From NCBI GenBank assembly GCA_022764505.1, contig JALEQJ010000041.1, forward strand, positions 1 to 45,173: a stretch of DNA of 45,173 nucleotides, read 5' to 3'. The notes below the pieces were generated by a model. It saw only the letters and a program-made list of their open reading frames with translations, had not been told where the DNA came from and did not search any database. Position numbers and translations under genes: made by a program. This stretch comes from Phocaeicola sp. GTDB taxonomy: Bacteria; Bacteroidota; Bacteroidia; Bacteroidales; Bacteroidaceae. Positions 29,716 through 37,549 of this stretch are shown here, piece by piece (position 1 is the stretch's first letter; each line of letters starts with the position of its first letter).

Positions 29716-30282
29716 TTATGCTTTCACACGACCTTGGTAAGAACCATCGCGTGTATCTATTTCTATGATTTCATCTTGATTGATGAAGAGAGGCACACGT
29801 ACTTCTGCACCGGTTTCTACAGTAGCAGGCTTCAATGTGTTGGTAGCAGTATCTCCCTTTAGTCCGGGTTCAGTGTAAGTAACACGTAATTGAACTTTTA
29901 CGGGCAATTCACCGAAAAGGATAGTTTCTGTAGAAGCATCGGATACTACATCTATGATCATTTCTTCTTTGAGGAAAGCTACACCTTCTATAAGCTCTTT
30001 TGCAATGGGTACTTGTTCAAAAGTTTCTTGGTTCATAAAGATATAGTCTTCTCCTTCTTTGTAGAGGTATTGGTAAGGGCGACGTTCTACACGCACATCT
30101 TCCAATTTTTCACCGATGTTAAAACGACGTTCCAAAACGTAGCCATCTACTACGTCTTTCAGTTTAGTACGCATAAAAGTGTTTCCTTTCCCTGGTTTTA
30201 CATGGAGAAAGTCAATGCAGAAATACAACTTACCGTCCATACGGATAGCTGTTCCGATTTTAATGTCTTGTGCATTTATCAT
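29716..30282 (-). CDS. efp: Elongation factor P
   Basis: 188 aa, standard length, three beta-barrel domains. EF-P enters the E site of stalled ribosomes and speeds peptide bonds at consecutive prolines. The tip of domain I reads [17 protein letters not shown] (about 28-44): the Lys in PGKG is the residue modified in EpmA-type organisms. No poxA/epmA, ymfI or earP gene is in the window. Domain II/III features are [28 protein letters not shown] and the C-terminal [22 protein letters not shown]. Monocistronic, with a promoter about 110 nt upstream. Confidence 0.97.
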
Positions 30283-30673
30283 ACTCTTGAATTTTTATTT
30301 TGTTATTAAATAGATGCGAAACCTATGGCTCTCTCTATGTATGAAGCAGACTGTTTTTGTGGTCATACTCAAGAAGACAGAAAACCTCGCCAAAGGTAAG
30401 CTAAATAGCGAAAAAACACAACAATTATTCCGTTGCTTACTCACAAAATGTAAGAAAGAGGTCTTTTCATCTCTATAAAAAAGAATCTTGCTCATCAATT
30501 GCAAGGAGATTTTTTGTTAAATAGTTGTCTGTTTCTTCTCCATTCGCTGAAAATTTATTTTGAACTTACGGTTCTTCTTTAATAAAAGTGAAATTTTACT
30601 CCCGAAAGACGTGTTCATTCTAAAATTACAGGAACTTTGTCTCCAGTATCAGCAATATGCGATCTCTCATCAG
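30283..30673. other. Divergent region efp / ECF sigma factor
   Basis: It holds the efp promoter and a hairpin with T-run on the plus strand (30484-30515; CTTGC/GCAAG core, then TTTTTT) that belongs to no recognised gene and might be a leader attenuator or the end of a small RNA. There is no good TAnnTTTG for the sigma gene. Confidence 0.5.
30391..30421 (-). promoter_or_regulatory. efp promoter
   Basis: Minus strand: -33 TTG (30419-30421), 20 nt, -7 TACCTTTG (30391-30398). It implies a leader of about 100 nt. Confidence 0.65.
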
Positions 30674-31225
30674 ATGAAACGGGAAGATAAAGAAATAAGT
30701 AAATGGGTTGAACTTTACTCACAGCCTCTATTAAATAAAGCTTTGACCATGGTGGACAATAAAGATGATGCCATGGATTTAGTACAAGAACTTTTCATCT
30801 CTGCTTCGTCTGCTTACCATACTTTTGAGAAGAAGAGTACTCCCTTAACATGGTTGCAAACTATATTGAAAAATAAAATAGCAGACTTTTACAGAACTCA
30901 GTATCGCAAACCTCAGACAATCAGTATAACCAATTTTTTTGATCAATCGGGAGGGTGGACAGATGATTCCGTTCTTAATGAGTGGTTATTGAATGGTGAT
31001 TCTGCAGAGGAACAGAAGGCTTTGATGAGTGTCTTGGATAAATGTATAGAATATCTTCCTCTACAATGGAAAACTACCGTAAAGCTTTATTATCTTGATG
31101 AGAAAAGAGCTCATGATATTTGTCGTGAATTGGATATTGCTACAACAAATTTGTGGAAAATACTTCAGCGTAGCCGTATGCAACTAAGAAAATGTCTTGA
31201 ATTAAACTGGTTTGATAAACTATGA
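30674..31225 (+). CDS. ECF-type sigma-70 factor
   Basis: 183 aa from ATG 30674, a usual ECF length; the frame is open upstream to a TTG at 30560 but the extra 38 residues match no sigma region. Region 2 is visible from WVELYSQPLLNKALTMV through DDAMDLVQELF, PLTWLQTILKNKIADFYR, and region 4 as LPLQWKTTVKLYYLDEKRAHDICRELDIATTNLWKILQRSRMQLRKCL, with a helix-turn-helix. It directs RNA polymerase to a stress regulon. Its stop overlaps the next start (ATGA, 31222-31225), and the next gene encodes a zinc anti-sigma-like protein. It has no primary-sigma -7 box upstream, which suits autoregulation. Confidence 0.88.
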   Translation: MKREDKEISKWVELYSQPLLNKALTMVDNKDDAMDLVQELFISASSAYHTFEKKSTPLTWLQTILKNKIADFYRTQYRKPQTISITNFFDQSGGWTDDSVLNEWLLNGDSAEEQKALMSVLDKCIEYLPLQWKTTVKLYYLDEKRAHDICRELDIATTNLWKILQRSRMQLRKCLELNWFDKL

Positions 31226-31506
31226 AAGTATTAATAAATAGATTGATTCATATTCTCATCATGCCATGTAGCCGAGTGCCGGCTTTGATTGAGCAACGGA
31301 ATGCAGGTGAACTCTCTTTCTTTAAGAGAATACGCCTCTATATGCATTTACTTGTATGTAAGTGGTGTAGTTCTTATGCAAAGAAAGTAGAACTAATAGA
31401 TGACTTGCTTACAAAAAAATACATGAGAGACGAAAAAAAAGAATCTTTCAAAGAAGATGAAATTCAGCGATTTAAAGATGTAGTTAAGAAAAAAATTACT
31501 CAATAA
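31222..31506 (+). CDS. Soluble zinc-binding anti-sigma (ZAS / zf-HC2-like) protein
   Basis: 94 aa with no membrane segment. The ZAS pattern is present: Cys16, then His42-x3-Cys46-x2-Cys49 (MPC ... YMHLLVCKWC), where zinc normally holds the sigma-binding helices and thiol oxidation or metal exchange releases sigma. The C-terminal half is a charged helix (KKYMRDEKKESFKEDEIQRFKDVVKK). Lack of a membrane anchor suggests sensing inside the cytoplasm rather than in the envelope. It is coupled to the sigma gene by a 4-nt overlap. The assignment rests on the motif and the neighbourhood. Confidence 0.75.
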   Translation: MKVLINRLIHILIMPCSRVPALIEQRNAGELSFFKRIRLYMHLLVCKWCSSYAKKVELIDDLLTKKYMRDEKKESFKEDEIQRFKDVVKKKITQ

Positions 31507-31516
31507 TCTTTTTATA

Positions 31517-31617
31517 CTTGTCAGGATTACGAGAATTTGCCGACTATAAAGTCAGAAAGCTCTATGATGGCTTTTGATAATTAGTAAGCACTTTCAACGT
31601 AAATAAAAACTGACAAG
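31517..31617 (+). promoter_or_regulatory. Leader with long-range inverted repeat before the DUF417 gene
   Basis: CTTGTCAG (31517-31524) and CTGACAAG (31610-31617) are perfect 8-bp complements; the second copy abuts the ATG at 31618 and so covers the ribosome-binding region. In between are small stems (GACT/AGTC; AAAGC/GCTTT). No TAnnTTTG is present. It could be an ECF-dependent promoter region or a translation switch; unproven. Confidence 0.4.
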
Positions 31618-32073
31618 ATGAATTTCGTAAAATCAATACTCTCCGGAAAGAGAGTGTCTCAAGCAGGATATTATCTTATTCTTTTAGGTTCTGCTACCAT
31701 TCTTATATGGCTTGGGATATTTAAGTTTACTTTAACAGAGGCTCTTGCTATTAAGCCTTTGTTGGAGCATCACCCTCTCACGTTTTGGGTGTACAGATAC
31801 TTCAGTTTACAAACAGTTTCCAATTTTGTGGGTATTATAGAGATTTCGGTAGGTCTCTTATTACTTCTCTCTATTTGTTTTCCCTTATTAAAACGATATG
31901 CCGGAGTGGGAATGGTTCTCATATTTCTCACTACGTTAAGCTTTTTGTTTTTTACTCCTGATATGTGGAGAGTAAAAGACGGGGTGATTATTACGGATTA
32001 TTTCATACTTAAAGATATTGCATATCTGGGGTTTGGGATAATGCTGTTCAGCCATTCAAATGATAAAATCTAA
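31618..32073 (+). CDS. DUF417 / RclC-like inner-membrane protein
   Basis: 151 aa with four membrane segments: [74 protein letters not shown]. The pattern [24 protein letters not shown] followed by GIIEISVG is that of the YkgB/DUF417 family, whose E. coli member RclC belongs to the reactive-chlorine resistance operon. The molecular activity is unknown. It lies 111 nt after the anti-sigma gene and 11 nt before an exported methionine sulfoxide reductase, which supports a role in oxidative defence of the envelope. Confidence 0.85.
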
Positions 32074-32084
32074 ATAGGAATAAA

Positions 32085-33161
32085 ATGAAAAAGGTAAATA
32101 TTTTGCTCCTCTTGCTTGTGGGTATATGTCTTATAGTTATGAAAACCAATGCTATGCAAGTAAATAAAAATATGGGAGAGGACTTGAAAAATGTCAAAAT
32201 GAAAAAAGTCATTTATTTAGCTGGAGGCTGTTTCTGGGGAACTGAGCATTTTTTGAAGCAAATTCGAGGAGTGATAAATACCGAAGTCGGTTATGCTAAT
32301 GGAATAGGTGGTCGCCCGAGTTATCAAGTAGTATCGACCGGAAAGAATAAGTTTGTTGAAACAGTTAAAGTAGAATATGATGCTGAGCAGATCAGTCTGG
32401 AGAAAATTTTGGATCTGTTTTATGAAACTATAGAACCTACAAGTCTCAATAAACAGGGTAATGATGTCGGTATACAATATAGAACGGGCATTTACTATAC
32501 GGATAAGGCTGATGAATCTATTGTAAAAGCTTCAATAAATCGTCTTGCTGCCAAGTTTTCTCTTCCACTTGCTTTGGAGTATAAGCTTCTGGAAAATTAT
32601 TATCCGGCAGAAAAGTATCATCAAAATTATTTGGATAAGCATCCTAATGGATATTGCCATATTCCTCAAAAGTTATTTCAAATGGCAAAGACTGCGAATC
32701 CAGCTTCTTCAACAAAGAAATTCATTCGTCCAGATGATGCTGCTTTGAAGAAAAGATTGTCTTCTGTTCAGTATGAAGTTACCCACAATAATGCAACGGA
32801 GAAACCTTTTCATAATGAGTATTGGAATGAATTTCGAGAAGGTATTTATGTAGATATTATCACAGGAGAACCTCTTTTTGTCTCTATAGATAAATTTGAT
32901 TCCGGTTGTGGCTGGCCAAGCTTTTCCAAGCCAATAGATAAATCTCTTATAGTAGAAAAAACAGATCGTTCACACGGTATGGTTCGGACGGAGATACGTA
33001 GTAAAACAGGAGATTCTCATTTGGGACATGTTTTCAATGATGGTCCTGTAGATAAGGGTGGAATGAGGTATTGTGTCAATAGCGCGGCTTTGCGTTTTAT
33101 TCCCAAAGAAAAAATGAAAGAAGAAGGATATGAAAATTATATCTTCTTGCTAAATAAATAA
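32085..33161 (+). CDS. msrAB: Exported MsrA-MsrB fusion (methionine sulfoxide reductase)
   Basis: 358 aa. An N-terminal hydrophobic signal ([23 protein letters not shown]) places it outside the cytoplasm. The MsrA domain (about 41-190) has the catalytic Cys49 in [10 protein letters not shown] and a recycling Cys in NGYCHIPQ. The MsrB domain (about 220-350) has [18 protein letters not shown] and the catalytic Cys (about 330) in [12 protein letters not shown]. It lacks the two CXXC zinc motifs of many MsrB proteins. Together the domains reduce both S and R methionine sulfoxide. The electron donor is not evident, as no thioredoxin-like domain is fused. It is central to the sigma operon. Confidence 0.95.
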
Positions 33162-33186
33162 TTATAAATATAATAACAGTTTGAAA

Positions 33187-34425
33187 ATGAAAAAGAAAAG
33201 TTTAAGAGCCAGTTTTTCGGCAATTGTCTTGATGAGTACGACATTATTTGTTTCTTGTCAGAAGAATGAAGAGATGAAAGCTCCGATGAAGAGCGATGTA
33301 CACACTTTTACAGTTGAGAATATTGTTACTCCCAAATTGTTTGTAGAGAGTGGTTCTTTCAAAGGAGTTGGCAGTGAAAAAGTAAATCTTCCTGTTATTC
33401 TACCAGGACAGAGTATTGATTTCAAATTTAAGGCTGGTAATGGGCAAGCATTGATGTTTGTTACTATGTATGGAAACTCCAAAGATTGGTTTTTTGCATC
33501 TGAACAGCCTGGAATAAAACTGTTTGATAAACAAGGGAAAGCTATGATAGGAGATGTGTCTTCTCAAGTAAAACTGTGGGATAATGGTACGAAAGATGAT
33601 CAGTCCGGAGCAAAAGAGTCTAAGCCTATTACAGAAGTTAAAGGTGTAGATGTATCCCGACTGATGCGTGCTGTGCTGGCGTACGAAGAAGCGACCTCAG
33701 AGTTTACGCTCTCTATTAAGAATATTTCAGGTGGTACCAAGAATGAGACTCCTTTCTCTCCTGGTGTTTGGGCTGTTTCTACATTTGATGGGAAAAAACT
33801 TCTTGCAGAAAAACCGTTCTTCTCTCCCGGAGAAAAATCTAATCCGGAAATTACAGATATTGCTCAAATGGGAAATATAGACAAGTTGAAAGCCAAGGTA
33901 GATTCAAATACCGGTATTATTACAGGAATATCTCCTGTACTTCTTGTAGTGTATCAAGGGGATAAGAATCCTATTTATGAATTAGGCAAGAAAGATTCGG
34001 GATTGGGATTGAAAGACTTGGCACAAAATGGGAACGCAAACAAATTAAAGGAAAGTTTGAAAAAAATGAAAGGTGTAAAGGGTATATATATAATAGGAAA
34101 TTCACCGATTGCTCCCGGACAAAAAGCTATGGGAGAATATAAAGCTGAAAAGGGTGATTTATTAGCCTATGCTACAATGTTCGGATTTTCAAATGACTGG
34201 TTTTATGCAAATGAGCAAAGTGTTTCCGCAGCTTTGAAAGGTGATATTACAAAGAAAACAGGGTTATTTGATTCAGGTACTGGAGTAGATCAATTCCCCG
34301 GAGCAGGAAACCGACAGGCTCTTTTCGGAGGAAAGTCTGCCGTAGAGAATAATGTAATAAGCAAGGTGGGAAATATATTCCCTGTTCCTGCTGTTGAAAA
34401 AGTATTGAAGATCACACTTAAGTAA
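33187..34425 (+). CDS. Lipoprotein with two Spondin_N-like repeats
   Basis: 412 aa from ATG 33187. Signal with lipobox: MKKKSLRASFSAIVLMSTTLFVSC. The first repeat (about 38-195) has LPGQSIDFKFKAGNGQALMFVTMYGNSKDWFFASEQPG and VKLWDNGTKDDQSG. The second (about 255-412) has IAPGQKAMGEYKAEKGDLLAYATMFGFSNDWFYANEQ and GLFDSGTGVDQFPGAGNRQALF, the spondin-domain signature (LFDAGTEVN.PG.G..QA). The ends SPGVWAVS and FTLSIKNIS also repeat. It is anchored to a membrane facing the periplasm or surface. The role is unknown, perhaps a Met-rich or redox target of MsrAB, though methionine is not strikingly enriched. Last gene of the sigma operon. Confidence 0.82.
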   Translation: MKKKSLRASFSAIVLMSTTLFVSCQKNEEMKAPMKSDVHTFTVENIVTPKLFVESGSFKGVGSEKVNLPVILPGQSIDFKFKAGNGQALMFVTMYGNSKDWFFASEQPGIKLFDKQGKAMIGDVSSQVKLWDNGTKDDQSGAKESKPITEVKGVDVSRLMRAVLAYEEATSEFTLSIKNISGGTKNETPFSPGVWAVSTFDGKKLLAEKPFFSPGEKSNPEITDIAQMGNIDKLKAKVDSNTGIITGISPVLLVVYQGDKNPIYELGKKDSGLGLKDLAQNGNANKLKESLKKMKGVKGIYIIGNSPIAPGQKAMGEYKAEKGDLLAYATMFGFSNDWFYANEQSVSAALKGDITKKTGLFDSGTGVDQFPGAGNRQALFGGKSAVENNVISKVGNIFPVPAVEKVLKITLK

Positions 34426-34535
34426 AAGCTTTATCTCAATCAAGAAGAATAAATTGTTTTGAGTAGGGTATATTGTCTTATTATGACATCGTAATTTAGT
34501 TATAGATATATATTTGAATTATTTGTAGACTGGAG

Positions 34536-34580
34536 ACCACTTGCCTCTTATATATAAGAGACGTAAGTGGTTTCTGTTTT
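34536..34580 (+). terminator. Terminator of the sigma-msrAB-spondin operon
   Basis: ACCACTT (34536-34542) pairs with AAGTGGT (34565-34571), with an inner stem CTCTTA/TAAGAG, followed by TTTCTGTTTT. Confidence 0.75.
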
Positions 34581-34776: not shown

Positions 34777-34870
34777 AATCATCATGAATAGGTATAGCAT
34801 AGATACTTTTCCTATTTGTGGATAGGAGTAAGTTTCTGTAAAATCATCATAAATAGGGATTGTATAGATA
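34777..34870 (+). repeat. Pair of 29-bp direct repeats
   Basis: Copies at 34777-34805 and 34842-34870 begin AATCATCAT and end ATAGATA, identical at 25 of 29 positions, spaced 65 nt start-to-start. The second overlaps the -33 region of the operon promoter. Confidence 0.65.
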
Positions 34871-34890
34871 GTACGATGCCCATAATTTTG
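34860..34890 (+). promoter_or_regulatory. Promoter of the LRR-calycin-TonB-HmuY operon
   Basis: -33 TTG (34860-34862), 20 nt, -7 TAATTTTG (34883-34890), with transcription about 20 nt before the ATG at 34915. The -33 lies inside a 29-bp direct repeat, a plausible place for a regulator such as an iron/heme repressor. Confidence 0.65.
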
Positions 34891-34914
34891 CTGATAGTTA
34901 TAAATCTAAAAAAA

Positions 34915-36312
34915 ATGAAAATGAAAAGAATTATTTTACCTCTCATAGCACTTTGTGTTTTGGGATTTAGTTCGTGTAGCAAAGACGATAGCTTTTCTTA
35001 CAGCTCTACAGCGTTACAGAATATGGAGCTGATGAATGTCTTAAAGTCCAAAGGTTTTACCTTTAATCAAGAAGGAAAATTGGAGTTGAATAATATAGCT
35101 ACCTCCACCATATCTCTTGACCTTAGTGGTACGAAACTCACAGACCTCACAGGACTGGATATTCTTCCCAATCTCAAAGAGGTAAAGCTCTCCGACAATG
35201 GTTATGGACCTATTTTTGATTTCGCGAAGTTACCTGCGCAAATCACAAGTGTAGACCTTACAGGGAATAATATCTACGACTTTGAAGGATTGGTAGATGT
35301 GAAAGTGGAGAACGAAGAAAGAAAAACCACCATTCTTCACAAGCTAAGCAAACTTTATCTTCCTGTTACTGCCAAATATAATATAGAAGACCTATTGCCT
35401 TTCTACGAAGCCAAAGAAAAGGACGTTGATATGCAAATGGCAGATGCTACCGGAAAAATGCAACCATATAACACGATAAGAGAAATCCCCGATCCCGCAT
35501 TTCATAGTTACTTGAAAGGTCTTTATCCAAGTATGTTTATAGATGACTCTCATTTGGATTTTTCTAAGCACTTAACACTTGCTGAAACAGGACAAAACAT
35601 TATGATGTTTTATGGTTATGAAGATATAAAATCTTTTGAGGGGATTGAGTACATTATCAATAATCCTTTTTTGGGAAGTATGAGTGTACTTTTAGGAGAT
35701 CTTGAAAACATCACTGTTACAGATGCTCCTTTGATGCCGAGAGAGAATATCAGAGGTTTAGGAATATCAGAGATTGATTTCAAGGGAGGTGTCTATTTGT
35801 CCAAAGCGACCAGTCTGGGCGCATTGTCTATCTCTCATTGCTCTAACCTGAAAGTGCTTGACTTGTCCAAAACAAAGATTTGCAACCAAGAAATTAAAGA
35901 TTTCGATGTAATGTTTTCTAATGTGTTAGACTTGCATCATTGTTCTCATTTGGAAGAGATTATTTTCCCTAATCCCGGTACTGATTGTATGGCTGGAATT
36001 ATATTAGAAGATCTGCCTAAACTGAAGAAAATAGATTTGAGTAGAATCACTGCTATAGATTATTTGTACTTATTCTTAGGTGATACAGAGGTCGTTTACC
36101 CTCAACTGAAAAACTACTTCAGCAATGGTCAAAGAAAGAAACTTGAATTAACTACCGACAGAGAAAAAGTTAATATAAGTATTTCTCAAAAAATATTTGA
36201 AACTAAAGCATTTAGAGATTTTATAAGAAAATACGGAAAGTATTGTGATGATGAATATAGTTCAAATCAAAAGTTTGGAGCAGTATCGTGGTTGTCGCTT
36301 TTAGAAGAATAA
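34915..36312 (+). CDS. Leucine-rich-repeat-type lipoprotein
   Basis: 465 aa from ATG 34915 (a second ATG at 34921 is equally good). Signal with lipobox MKMKRIILPLIALCVLGFSSC. Early leucine-rich units are recognisable: TISLDLSGTKLTDLTGLDILPNLKEVKLSDN, then ITSVDLTGNNIYDFEGLVDV. Later units are more degenerate (NLKVLDLSKTKI, KLKKIDLSRITAI). It resembles surface leucine-rich lipoproteins of Bacteroidales that bind host or partner proteins. It is anchored in the outer membrane, first gene of the operon leading to a TonB receptor and HmuY-like protein, hence possibly a capture protein for a host heme-carrier or glycoprotein. Confidence 0.8.
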   Translation: MKMKRIILPLIALCVLGFSSCSKDDSFSYSSTALQNMELMNVLKSKGFTFNQEGKLELNNIATSTISLDLSGTKLTDLTGLDILPNLKEVKLSDNGYGPIFDFAKLPAQITSVDLTGNNIYDFEGLVDVKVENEERKTTILHKLSKLYLPVTAKYNIEDLLPFYEAKEKDVDMQMADATGKMQPYNTIREIPDPAFHSYLKGLYPSMFIDDSHLDFSKHLTLAETGQNIMMFYGYEDIKSFEGIEYIINNPFLGSMSVLLGDLENITVTDAPLMPRENIRGLGISEIDFKGGVYLSKATSLGALSISHCSNLKVLDLSKTKICNQEIKDFDVMFSNVLDLHHCSHLEEIIFPNPGTDCMAGIILEDLPKLKKIDLSRITAIDYLYLFLGDTEVVYPQLKNYFSNGQRKKLELTTDREKVNISISQKIFETKAFRDFIRKYGKYCDDEYSSNQKFGAVSWLSLLEE

Positions 36313-36344
36313 GTTATTGACAGTATTAAATTCTTTACGCTAAG

Positions 36345-36800
36345 ATGATGAAACGGATATTATTTATAGCCATTATGATTTTCAGTGTGGCTCTGACAAT
36401 TTCTGCACAACAAGCCGTAAATGGAGATTATGCAGGTAAATTCACACGTATCTATATGAATGGAGAGAAGTCTGTACCTACGGAAAGTATTTTTACGGTA
36501 GTTTCTCAGACAAAATCACTGATTACTATGAAAATAGCTCCTTTCAAAATAGGAAAAATGCCGGGAACTGTGGAAGTAACAGCAGAAAACATAGTGCTCA
36601 ATTCAGATGGTACTTTCAATCAAGTTGTTGCTAATGGCATCAAAATGGAGATAAAGGGCTTTATGAAAGCAGAGTATAATGCCATAGTAACCGGTACATT
36701 GATAAACAATGTCTTGACTTATACCATTACCAGTCGTGATGCTTCTTTTATGGGGAAACCATTTTCTGCTATCGTAGGATTTAAGGGAATGAAGGAGTAA
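36345..36800 (+). CDS. Small exported calycin-like protein
   Basis: 151 aa, signal peptide MMKRILFIAIMIFSVALTISAQQ (a second ATG at 36348 is also possible). The body looks like the Bacteroidales calycin-like (lipocalin-type) domain: NGDYAGKFTRIYMN..., then MKIAPFKIGKMPGTVEV and YTITSRDASFMGKPFSAIVGFKG. The segment F-x-I-G-K-MP is shared with the next protein. Lipocalin-like folds bind small hydrophobic ligands; heme is a possible ligand given the operon, but nothing in the sequence proves it. It starts 32 nt after the leucine-rich lipoprotein. Confidence 0.75.
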   Translation: MMKRILFIAIMIFSVALTISAQQAVNGDYAGKFTRIYMNGEKSVPTESIFTVVSQTKSLITMKIAPFKIGKMPGTVEVTAENIVLNSDGTFNQVVANGIKMEIKGFMKAEYNAIVTGTLINNVLTYTITSRDASFMGKPFSAIVGFKGMKE

Positions 36801-36829
36801 CCCCGATAGATATTATGTAGAGATAAAAA

Positions 36830-36884
36830 GAGAATGTGCTTATGTATGACACTTGTTTATGAGTGGCGTATGTTGCACATTCTC
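36830..36884 (+). promoter_or_regulatory. Intra-operon hairpin
   Basis: A perfect 10-bp inverted repeat GAGAATGTGC (36830-36839)/GCACATTCTC (36875-36884) with an inner CACT/AGTG stem. No T-run, so more likely an mRNA stability or pausing element than a terminator. Confidence 0.45.
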
Positions 36885-36922
36885 CTTCCCATAAATACAG
36901 AAACCGTAATAGAATAGATCGT

Positions 36923-37549
36923 ATGAAACAGATGAAGTTTTTATTGATATTCGCAGTTCTTTTCTTTTTTGCATCTTGTTCTTCCGATGAGAACTTAGAA
37001 AAGAAGGAAACTGCCGAAACTTTGGTTACAGAAGCGAAGAGCTTTTTGAATGGTGATTTTGTACTTAGTACACACGCTACTATGAGTGGCGTAAACAAAA
37101 CCTTATTGCCACAAGGTTGCCCTACAAAATTCAATTTTAGTTGGAGTAAAACAGACAAACATAGCTTCACGATAAAGTTGAACAATTTCACCGTCGGGAA
37201 TATGCCGTTTATTATCACTTTCGCTTGCGATGTGCAAATTATGCAACTTAATTCTTGGGAAAAGAATGAATACAAAGGAAAAGGTTGGATAAAATTCAAA
37301 GGCGAAGATGGGTATGTGGTAGCCGATGAAGAAGGGCAAGGCAATACTACGGCAAAAGGCAGTATGGTAAAAGGCTATTACAACGTGAAAACACACGAAA
37401 TAAATTTCATCATAGATTACAATATGATGAATGTACGTTCAGAATGTTTCTTGCAGGTTATAGACAAAAACCGTATAAAGAACTACGATGTAGAGTTTAA
37501 GAAGTACGAAGAAGACCTTGCTGCCTATAAGAAAGAACATGGCTTATAA
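36923..37549 (+). CDS. Lipoprotein with calycin-like domain (second of the pair)
   Basis: 208 aa from ATG 36923, which gives the lipobox MKQMKFLLIFAVLFFFASC; the longer frame starts inside the hairpin region and has no signal. The mature part has FTIKLNNFTVGNMPFIITFACDVQIM, paralleling MKIAPFKIGKMPGTVEVTAENIVL of the previous protein, so both appear to be the same fold. Two Cys and a Lys/Glu-rich C-terminal helix (KKYEEDLAAYKKEHGL) follow. It is anchored to the envelope; the ligand is unknown. It lies between the small calycin-like gene and the TonB receptor. Confidence 0.75.
   Translation: MKQMKFLLIFAVLFFFASCSSDENLEKKETAETLVTEAKSFLNGDFVLSTHATMSGVNKTLLPQGCPTKFNFSWSKTDKHSFTIKLNNFTVGNMPFIITFACDVQIMQLNSWEKNEYKGKGWIKFKGEDGYVVADEEGQGNTTAKGSMVKGYYNVKTHEINFIIDYNMMNVRSECFLQVIDKNRIKNYDVEFKKYEEDLAAYKKEHGL

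What the first reader, a model, noticed from the sequence alone, without database searches (positions are those of the whole stretch)
30560..34425. Self-contained ECF sigma / soluble ZAS / DUF417 / MsrAB / Spondin_N stress operon
Seen: an ECF sigma factor overlapping a soluble zinc-binding anti-sigma-like protein (Cys16, His42-x3-Cys46-x2-Cys49, no membrane helix), then a DUF417 (RclC-like) membrane protein, an exported MsrA-MsrB fusion, and a lipoprotein with two Spondin_N-like repeats, closed by a terminator. Known: ZAS domains can release sigma on thiol oxidation, RclC is in E. coli's reactive-chlorine operon, and Msr enzymes repair methionine. Inference: a single regulon that senses oxidant and repairs the envelope, with the Spondin_N lipoprotein as an unexplained effector, possibly a new module.
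Basis: partly seen in the sequence, partly recalled or inferred. Interest (0 to 1): 0.85.

Follow-up and report, generated by a model that had tools for sequence, protein, structure and literature searches.

The report
Oxidant-response operon with spondin-like lipoprotein
A small bacterial stress operon whose own sigma factor very probably switches on envelope repair genes and a spondin-like outer lipoprotein, most likely against immune or salivary bleach-like oxidants; its core is of a known kind, the lipoprotein is a new recurring part.

Summary
The five genes are real: ECF sigma (start corrected to 30674), soluble ZAS anti-sigma, DUF417, exported MsrAB, spondin lipoprotein. A conserved promoter-like site, GTCAGGATT-N12-CGACTATA (31520-31548), lies between the anti-sigma and DUF417 genes. 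It fits the published Neisseria sigmaE -35 and spacing exactly and its -10 at 6 of 8 bases.

The same site precedes the spondin gene where that gene is unlinked. In six Chryseobacterium genomes it marks a sigma-ZAS-DUF417-MsrAB operon (6 of 6) and the distant spondin gene (5 of 6). Of 22 strict sites in 18 genomes, 20 are at module genes. In a 395-genome scan 19 of 23 sites lie at MsrA/MsrAB, sigma, DUF1223, spondin, Met-rich-peptide or MNIO-enzyme genes. So the single-regulon inference is well supported by sequence. That oxidants are the signal is inferred from Neisseria and Haemophilus relatives; nothing was measured.

Sigma/ZAS control of MsrAB plus a membrane protein is known; the spondin lipoprotein as a recurrent target appears new in the papers searched. 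The module is patchy (spondin in 1 of 61 congeneric genomes) and probably moves between lineages. In 11 loci the -35 strand can pair with bases at the next start codon: a possible read-through lock, weakly supported.

The parts
30674..31225 (+). ECF sigma factor, 183 aa (ORF open from TTG 30560)
   Evidence: Sigma70_r2 E 1.9e-13, best NCBIfam TIGR02943 7.1e-29 below cut-off; start by comparison with orthologues
31222..31506 (+). soluble ZAS anti-sigma factor, 94 aa, C16-x25-H42-x3-C46-x2-C49
   Evidence: NF052368 E 4.9e-10, below cut-off; conserved ligand positions; no TM stretch
31520..31548 (+). predicted sigma-dependent promoter: -35 GTCAGGATT, spacer 12, -10 CGACTATA
   Evidence: Only match in the window with up to 3 mismatches, itself exact; 0.13 expected; conserved in relatives; fits the Neisseria sigmaE -35 and spacing (passage)
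31517..31524 (+). 5' arm (CTTGTCAG) of an inverted repeat overlapping the -35 box
31610..31617 (+). 3' arm (CTGACAAG) directly before the DUF417 start codon
31618..32073 (+). DUF417 (RclC-like) membrane protein, 151 aa
   Evidence: PF04224 E 2.8e-27; NF040476 RclC 1.6e-11, below cut-off; hydrophobic stretches
32085..33161 (+). exported MsrA-MsrB fusion, 358 aa; MsrA domain about 32211-32660, MsrB domain about 32757-33104
   Evidence: PF01625 3.6e-56, PF01641 1.6e-47; N-terminal hydrophobic stretch
33187..34425 (+). lipoprotein (lipobox Cys24) with one partial and one fuller spondin-like domain, 412 aa
   Evidence: NF038123 1.5e-58; A1 alignment
34532..34574 (+). terminator-like hairpin followed by TGTTTT
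   Evidence: fold z -3.85; not listed by the simple scan

Best explanation
A self-contained, horizontally moving ECF regulon for oxidant damage of the envelope. The cytoplasmic ZAS protein holds the sigma factor; oxidation of its zinc-ligand cysteines (inferred; HOCl or HOSCN most likely) frees it. The sigma then transcribes DUF417-MsrAB-spondin from the promoter at 31520-31548 (inferred from conservation; not measured). MsrAB reduces methionine sulfoxide in exported proteins. DUF417 contributes HOCl/HOSCN resistance as RclC and RcrB do, by an unknown route. The spondin lipoprotein sits on the outer membrane, perhaps outward, and most likely binds or shields envelope partners during the stress rather than acting as a methionine sponge. 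Shown here: gene content, conserved order, shared promoter-like site, distribution. Inferred: signal, release, transcription, localisation, the roles of DUF417 and spondin.
For: Five-gene order in 4 of 54 genome loci (P. gulae, P. crevioricanis, P. macacae, Bergeyella cardium), without MsrAB in 4, sigma-ZAS-spondin in 2; the other 44 are Chryseobacterium. Same five genes in rotated order in L125. Motif within 250 bp upstream of spondin in 36 of 54 and in the ZAS-next gene gap in 7 more; all 43 sites in 813 kb are at these places; three control patterns gave 0 and a fourth 1. 22 strict sites in 18 genomes, 20 at module genes. 395-genome scan: 19 of 23 sites at genes of this kind. ZAS spacing 26-4-3 equals RsrA and MseR. 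L126 joins spondin, sigma, ZAS, DUF417, a Met-rich peptide (by eye), a cytochrome b561 and an MsrP-like protein. DUF417 proteins RclC and RcrB act in HOSCN and HOCl resistance.
Against: No expression data. Neisseria sigmaE did not answer to H2O2, diamide or singlet oxygen; the H. influenzae rpoE2 deletion had wild-type oxidant resistance in vitro. The backward control pattern gave 15 sites in the 395 genomes by my count of the listing, so single sites can be chance; the own genome has a second exact match to the looser pattern, inside secA. The 44 Chryseobacterium loci are close kin, not independent. The window sigma gene has no such site of its own. Of the 10 non-Chryseobacterium loci 4 lack MsrAB and 2 lack DUF417 and MsrAB.
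Confidence: 0.8

Rival explanations
1. Same regulon, but the inducing signal is not an oxidant: a metal (copper, cadmium, gold) or other envelope stress, as in regulons where such sigma factors control bufferin copper sponges.
For: Neisseria/Haemophilus regulons hold the DoxX cluster with DUF2063 and UPF0276 proteins, which resembles the core of bufferin copper-chelating clusters; the motif stands near MNIO-enzyme genes in L169 and L170; H2O2, diamide and singlet oxygen failed to induce in Neisseria.
Against: No MNIO gene lies in the window operon, which holds MsrAB and DUF417; the H. influenzae relative responds to HOCl.
Confidence: 0.2
2. The spondin lipoprotein is a sacrificial methionine sink recycled by MsrAB, like MrpX.
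For: Linked to MsrA or MsrAB under another regulator type (L128, L041); Met residues in the tether of many relatives.
Against: Met content of the mature protein is only 2.6% in the window and 2.6-5.5% in 22 rows; a separate Met-rich peptide exists beside it in L126.
Confidence: 0.1
3. The spondin gene is a passenger adhesin or surface protein with no role in the oxidant response.
Against: In Chryseobacterium this subfamily is unlinked and still carries the same site as the sigma operon; a mere passenger would not.
Confidence: 0.1

Closest known systems
Neisseria meningitidis sigmaE (NMB2144) / MseR (NMB2145) regulon
   Same: ECF sigma with downstream soluble ZAS of identical Cys/His spacing; msrAB and a DoxX-type membrane protein as targets; -35 and spacer fit the consensus exactly, -10 CGACTATA agrees with CGTCTAAH at 6 of 8 bases
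   Different: There msrAB is at another locus, the operon holds a DoxX-like gene and three further hypothetical genes and is autoregulated; no spondin or DUF417 is reported in the passages read
Haemophilus influenzae RpoE2/HrsE
   Same: Soluble 67-aa ZAS-type anti-sigma, periplasmic MsrAB as target, HOCl and H2O2 raise rpoE2
   Different: In most strains msrAB is separated from rpoE2 by a DMT transporter gene; DoxX cluster elsewhere; no spondin in the text (0 occurrences)
Azospira SigF/NrsF-MrpX-YedY1/YedZ1 and Brucella BcrS/AbcS-BcrXQP
   Same: ECF control of methionine sulfoxide repair under HOCl
   Different: Membrane NrsF-type anti-sigma, Met-rich peptide, MsrPQ-type reductase (Azospira details recalled or as cited)
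E. coli RclC and UPEC RcrB (DUF417)
   Same: DUF417 membrane protein in HOSCN/HOCl resistance
   Different: rclABC is controlled by RclR and has RclA and RclB as partners; the NCBIfam RclC model is far below cut-off here

Membership tests
ECF sigma / ZAS anti-sigma pair (RsrA-MseR-HrsE type) | Cys/His-x23-26-His-x3-Cys-x2-Cys in a soluble protein encoded directly after the sigma gene | tested here: met
   C16, H42, C46, C49; 4-bp overlap; no TM stretch; spacing from PMC2893595 and PMC7907618
ECF sigma / ZAS anti-sigma pair (RsrA-MseR-HrsE type) | ZAS binds and inhibits the sigma factor | not testable with these tools
   Needs binding assay
ECF sigma / ZAS anti-sigma pair (RsrA-MseR-HrsE type) | Score above curated cut-off of an anti-sigma family | tested here: not met
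   NF052368 39.1 of 50 bits; the relative in L126 passes with 51.8
Neisseria sigmaE-type regulon | Promoter GTMAGBWTT, spacer 12-13, CGTCTAAH | tested here: inconclusive
   -35 and spacer met exactly; -10 is CGACTATA, 6 of 8
Neisseria sigmaE-type regulon | Sigma gene autoregulated | tested here: not met
   No site upstream of sigma in the window; sites before sigma exist in L126, L168, L175 and L176
MsrAB fusion | MsrA and MsrB domains above cut-off in one exported chain | tested here: met
   signal-like N terminus
RclC equivalog (DUF417) | NCBIfam RclC model above cut-off | tested here: not met
   44.4 of 275 bits; DUF417 itself passes
Spondin-domain lipoprotein | NF038123 above cut-off; lipobox cysteine | tested here: met
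   198.3 bits against a cut-off of 40; Cys24 invariant in 22 rows
Spondin-domain lipoprotein | Spondin fold | not testable with these tools
   Structure prediction switched off; no PDB sequence relative at E up to 1

The most novel reading that the evidence does not exclude
The promoter doubles as an RNA lock. In read-through mRNA from the sigma-ZAS genes the -35 strand (CUUGUCAG) pairs with CUGACAAG just before the DUF417 start and hides it; mRNA begun at the sigma promoter lacks that arm and is translated. Effectors would then be made only from sigma-started mRNA.
Probability: 0.25. Interest if true: 0.75.

Novelty: new variant of a known kind. Interest (0 to 1): 0.6.

Why it matters
It gives the bacterial spondin-domain lipoprotein, for which I saw no stated function in the papers listed or read, a likely regulon and a testable role, and it suggests that a Neisseria-like sigma/ZAS promoter code runs through Bacteroidota, linking MsrAB, MsrP-like systems, Met-rich peptides and MNIO (bufferin-type) genes. 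Oral and airway Bacteroidota, which meet neutrophil HOCl and salivary HOSCN (my knowledge), share it.

Tried and rejected
Pfam Spond_N over the own genome gave nothing at E 0.001; NF038123 was used instead. Sacrificial-methionine role: Met content ordinary. P. gingivalis PG0985 as the counterpart: its operon holds a DUF4252 protein, so it is another sigma (passages). Plasmid-borne relatives: only 3 records, none covering 80% of the query. Solved structures: none for spondin; only a chance match for ZAS. A convergent RNA lock in Chryseobacterium operons looked likely from single folds (z -0.4 to -4.5 in 6 operons), but 11 operons do not exceed a shuffled-promoter control (0 of 11 at 3 or fewer of 60), so it is dropped. 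For the 11 other loci the same test reached 3 or fewer of 60 shuffles in only 2 of 11, the orphan spondin promoters reach it in 10 of 32, and the two groups do not differ (p 0.16). Also against the lock: RNA from +1 still folds in 2 of 11 loci (L057 z -2.05, L094 z -2.89), and RNAalifold's covariation term is slightly unfavourable (+0.38). The remaining support is the 8-pair helix (85 of 88 pairs; shuffled arms 0 of 5000; 3' arms swapped among loci 261 of 20000) and the fold z-scores (-1.6 to -4.0 in 11 loci; there the L054, L057 and L060 stretches were off by a few bases). One search was a first run of the arm count with wrong arms or starts for several loci; one search replaces it.
Full report
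What is there. The five genes are present and co-directional between efp (29716-30282, minus strand) and a set of lipoprotein-like genes. The sigma gene most likely starts at 30674 by comparison with orthologues, the spondin gene at 33187. Sigma and ZAS overlap by 4 bp; ZAS to DUF417 leaves a gap of 111 bp; a terminator-like hairpin follows the spondin gene at about 34532-34574 (not listed by the simple scan).

Proteins. Sigma: Sigma70_r2 E 1.9e-13, region 4 under cut-off (19.8 of 25.7 bits). ZAS: Cys16, His42, Cys46, Cys49. Its spacing equals that of MseR (Cys4, His30, Cys34, Cys37) and RsrA (11, 37, 41, 44) as given in PMC2893595 (passages). DUF417: Pfam E 2.8e-27; the RclC equivalog model is far below cut-off. 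MsrAB: both domains strong, N terminus signal-like. Spondin lipoprotein: NF038123 E 1.5e-58, only cysteine the lipobox one, Met 2.6% of the mature protein. Its tether CQKNEE is acidic after the cysteine and resembles in part the surface export signal C-X-K-(D/E)2 of PMC5080379 (passages); a surface position is therefore possible, not shown.

Conserved neighbourhood. A scan of the one-genome-per-species collection (84,980 species) for close relatives of the spondin protein gave 54 loci, all with Bacteroidota names. In 54 of 54, with up to 7 kb of flank, I looked for the other genes. Full order in 4: Porphyromonas gulae, P. crevioricanis, P. macacae, Bergeyella cardium. Without MsrAB in 4: Prevotella OH937, Hoylesella oralis, H. 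pleuritidis, Segatella buccae. Sigma-ZAS-spondin in 2: Tannerella forsythia, Riemerella columbipharyngis. The other 44 are Chryseobacterium, with spondin away from the operon (L089 has another sigma-ZAS pair beside it; L076, L098 and L100 have a more distant sigma gene in the locus). In L125 (same order as the window's genome) the same genes stand as DUF417-MsrAB-spondin-sigma-ZAS. In L126 (same class) spondin, a Met-rich secreted peptide (judged by eye; no family above cut-off), an AhpC/TSA protein, a thioredoxin, sigma, ZAS, cytochrome b561, an MsrP-like molybdopterin protein (MsrP model 84.3 of 207 bits) and DUF417 lie together. In 7 of the 28 rows that one search printed, spondin stands by a pair of the same two clusters, which in L128 are a histidine kinase and a response regulator by Pfam; in L128 MsrA and in L041 MsrAB stand there too. 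None of the seven holds the motif.

Promoter-like site. The gap between ZAS and the next gene holds GTCAGGATT-N12-CGACTATA (31520-31548). In the window it is the only match with up to 3 mismatches (0.13 expected). The Neisseria sigmaE consensus in PMC2893595 is GTMAGBWTT, spacer 12-13, CGTCTAAH (passage). In an alignment of 16 gaps most motif columns are invariant or nearly so, while mean column identity is 43%. In the 54 loci the motif is within 250 bp upstream of spondin in 36 and in the ZAS gap in 7 more; there is no other site in 813 kb; of four control patterns three gave no site and one gave one elsewhere. Of the 11 that have neither, two have gap sites that miss the strict pattern (L054, L056) and nine are Chryseobacterium with one or two mismatches. 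In 18 whole genomes a strict pattern gave 22 sites in 15 genomes, 20 of them at module genes (9 by identity with sites, 11 by gene context); two lie elsewhere (L140, L151); the backward control gave 5 sites by my count. In six Chryseobacterium genomes one site lies in the gap of an unlinked sigma-ZAS-DUF417-MsrAB operon (6 of 6; in G883 several of these genes, and its spondin gene, are split by frame breaks) and one before spondin (5 of 6; the sixth, L089, has one mismatch). In the window's own genome a looser pattern gave two further sites, one exact inside secA and one with a mismatch inside another coding frame. G634, which holds L125, has no strict site; by eye GTCAGTATT-N12-AGACTAA stands before its DUF417 gene.

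Unbiased scan. In 395 Bacteroidota genomes (window's included) the motif occurs 23 times in 17 genomes; the backward control occurs 15 times by my count of the listing. Context: 6 in the ZAS gap of a sigma-ZAS-DUF417-MsrAB operon (window included; for one, L174, DUF417 was not called in the script), 1 before spondin, 4 before MsrA or MsrAB, 3 before sigma genes and 2 before DUF1223 genes divergent from them (DUF1223 Pfam-checked for one genome), 1 between ZAS and a Met-rich peptide (by eye), 2 near MNIO-enzyme (PF05114) genes; 19 in all. Of the other 4, two are before thioredoxin-like or Omp28-like genes (L159, L171) and two have no visible link (L172, L173). The clustering at such genes, more than the raw number, is the evidence; I did not look at the genes around the control sites.

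Spread. Spondin (this protein as query) occurs in 1 of 61 congeneric genomes, 3 of 201 of a family sample and 10 of 395 of a class sample, each count including the window's own genome; DUF417 in 2 of 61, the second very weak (E 8.5e-4). The wider spondin domain is in 26 of 296 phylum genomes. A tree of 25 spondin proteins puts the window in a starred group of 4 with Prevotella OH937, P. gulae and P. crevioricanis, while P. macacae falls outside it (the tool warns of long branches for L094, L097 and L125). Horizontal movement among host-associated Bacteroidota is the simplest reading. That the named species outside Chryseobacterium are mostly oral or airway organisms is my knowledge, not a tool result.

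Known systems. Neisseria sigmaE/MseR controls msrAB and a DoxX operon (PMC2893595 and PMC3240639, passages); H. influenzae RpoE2/HrsE controls msrAB and the DoxX cluster, and rpoE2 responds to HOCl and H2O2, though its deletion kept wild-type resistance in vitro (PMC7907618, abstract, passages and section 24). Brucella BcrS/AbcS uses a membrane anti-sigma (PMC8315932, passages). RclC is needed for HOSCN and RcrB for HOCl resistance (PMC12096828, passages). The bufferin link is from PMC12452194 (abstract start and passages). Melnyk 2015 was not held; its content is recalled or cited by others. I saw no paper on spondin-domain lipoproteins in such regulons in the listings (14 of 16 shown; 10 of 57; 30 of 46; 12 of 52); the only bacterial spondin passage read, in PMC6316408, puts two such genes by a two-component pair and an L-amino-acid oxidase.

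RNA lock, speculative. In 11 loci the -35 arm can pair with the bases at the next start codon (85 of 88 pairs). RNAalifold on 10 of them finds the helix, with one of 8 pairs changed on both sides in two sequences, but a covariation term of +0.38. In the window RNA from the -35 on folds better than shuffles (z -3.55, 0 of 200) and RNA from just after the -10 does not (z 0.85); over 11 loci the first has z -1.6 to -4.0, and the second is clearly folded in 2 of 11. A stricter test against shuffled promoter segments is not convincing and the control group is mixed. I hold it at 0.25.

Verdict.

Noticed in passing
L055:3266-3721: In this P. crevioricanis record the DUF417 frame has an early in-frame stop, leaving a 111-aa downstream frame; sequencing error or decay.
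   Followed up: no
L169, L170: The same motif stands close to genes for MNIO (bufferin-type) RiPP enzymes, in L170 with a peroxiredoxin-like gene, suggesting bufferin-like clusters in Bacteroidota under a similar sigma.
   Followed up: partly
L165/L175, L176/L179: Divergent sigma and DUF1223-type genes with the motif on both strands in the shared intergenic region; a cytochrome b561-like gene follows DUF1223 (Pfam-checked in L176).
   Followed up: partly
L128, L129, L033, L036, L037, L043, L041: Spondin-domain lipoprotein gene next to a response regulator and histidine kinase pair (Pfam-checked for L128 only), without the sigma motif: another regulator for the same kind of effector.
   Followed up: partly
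L004, L034 (G254): A protein of about 1000 aa with several spondin-domain matches in one chain.
   Followed up: no
window 34816-37549: Downstream genes: LRR protein, calycin-like barrel, DUF4903; beyond the hairpin and not part of the operon.
   Followed up: no
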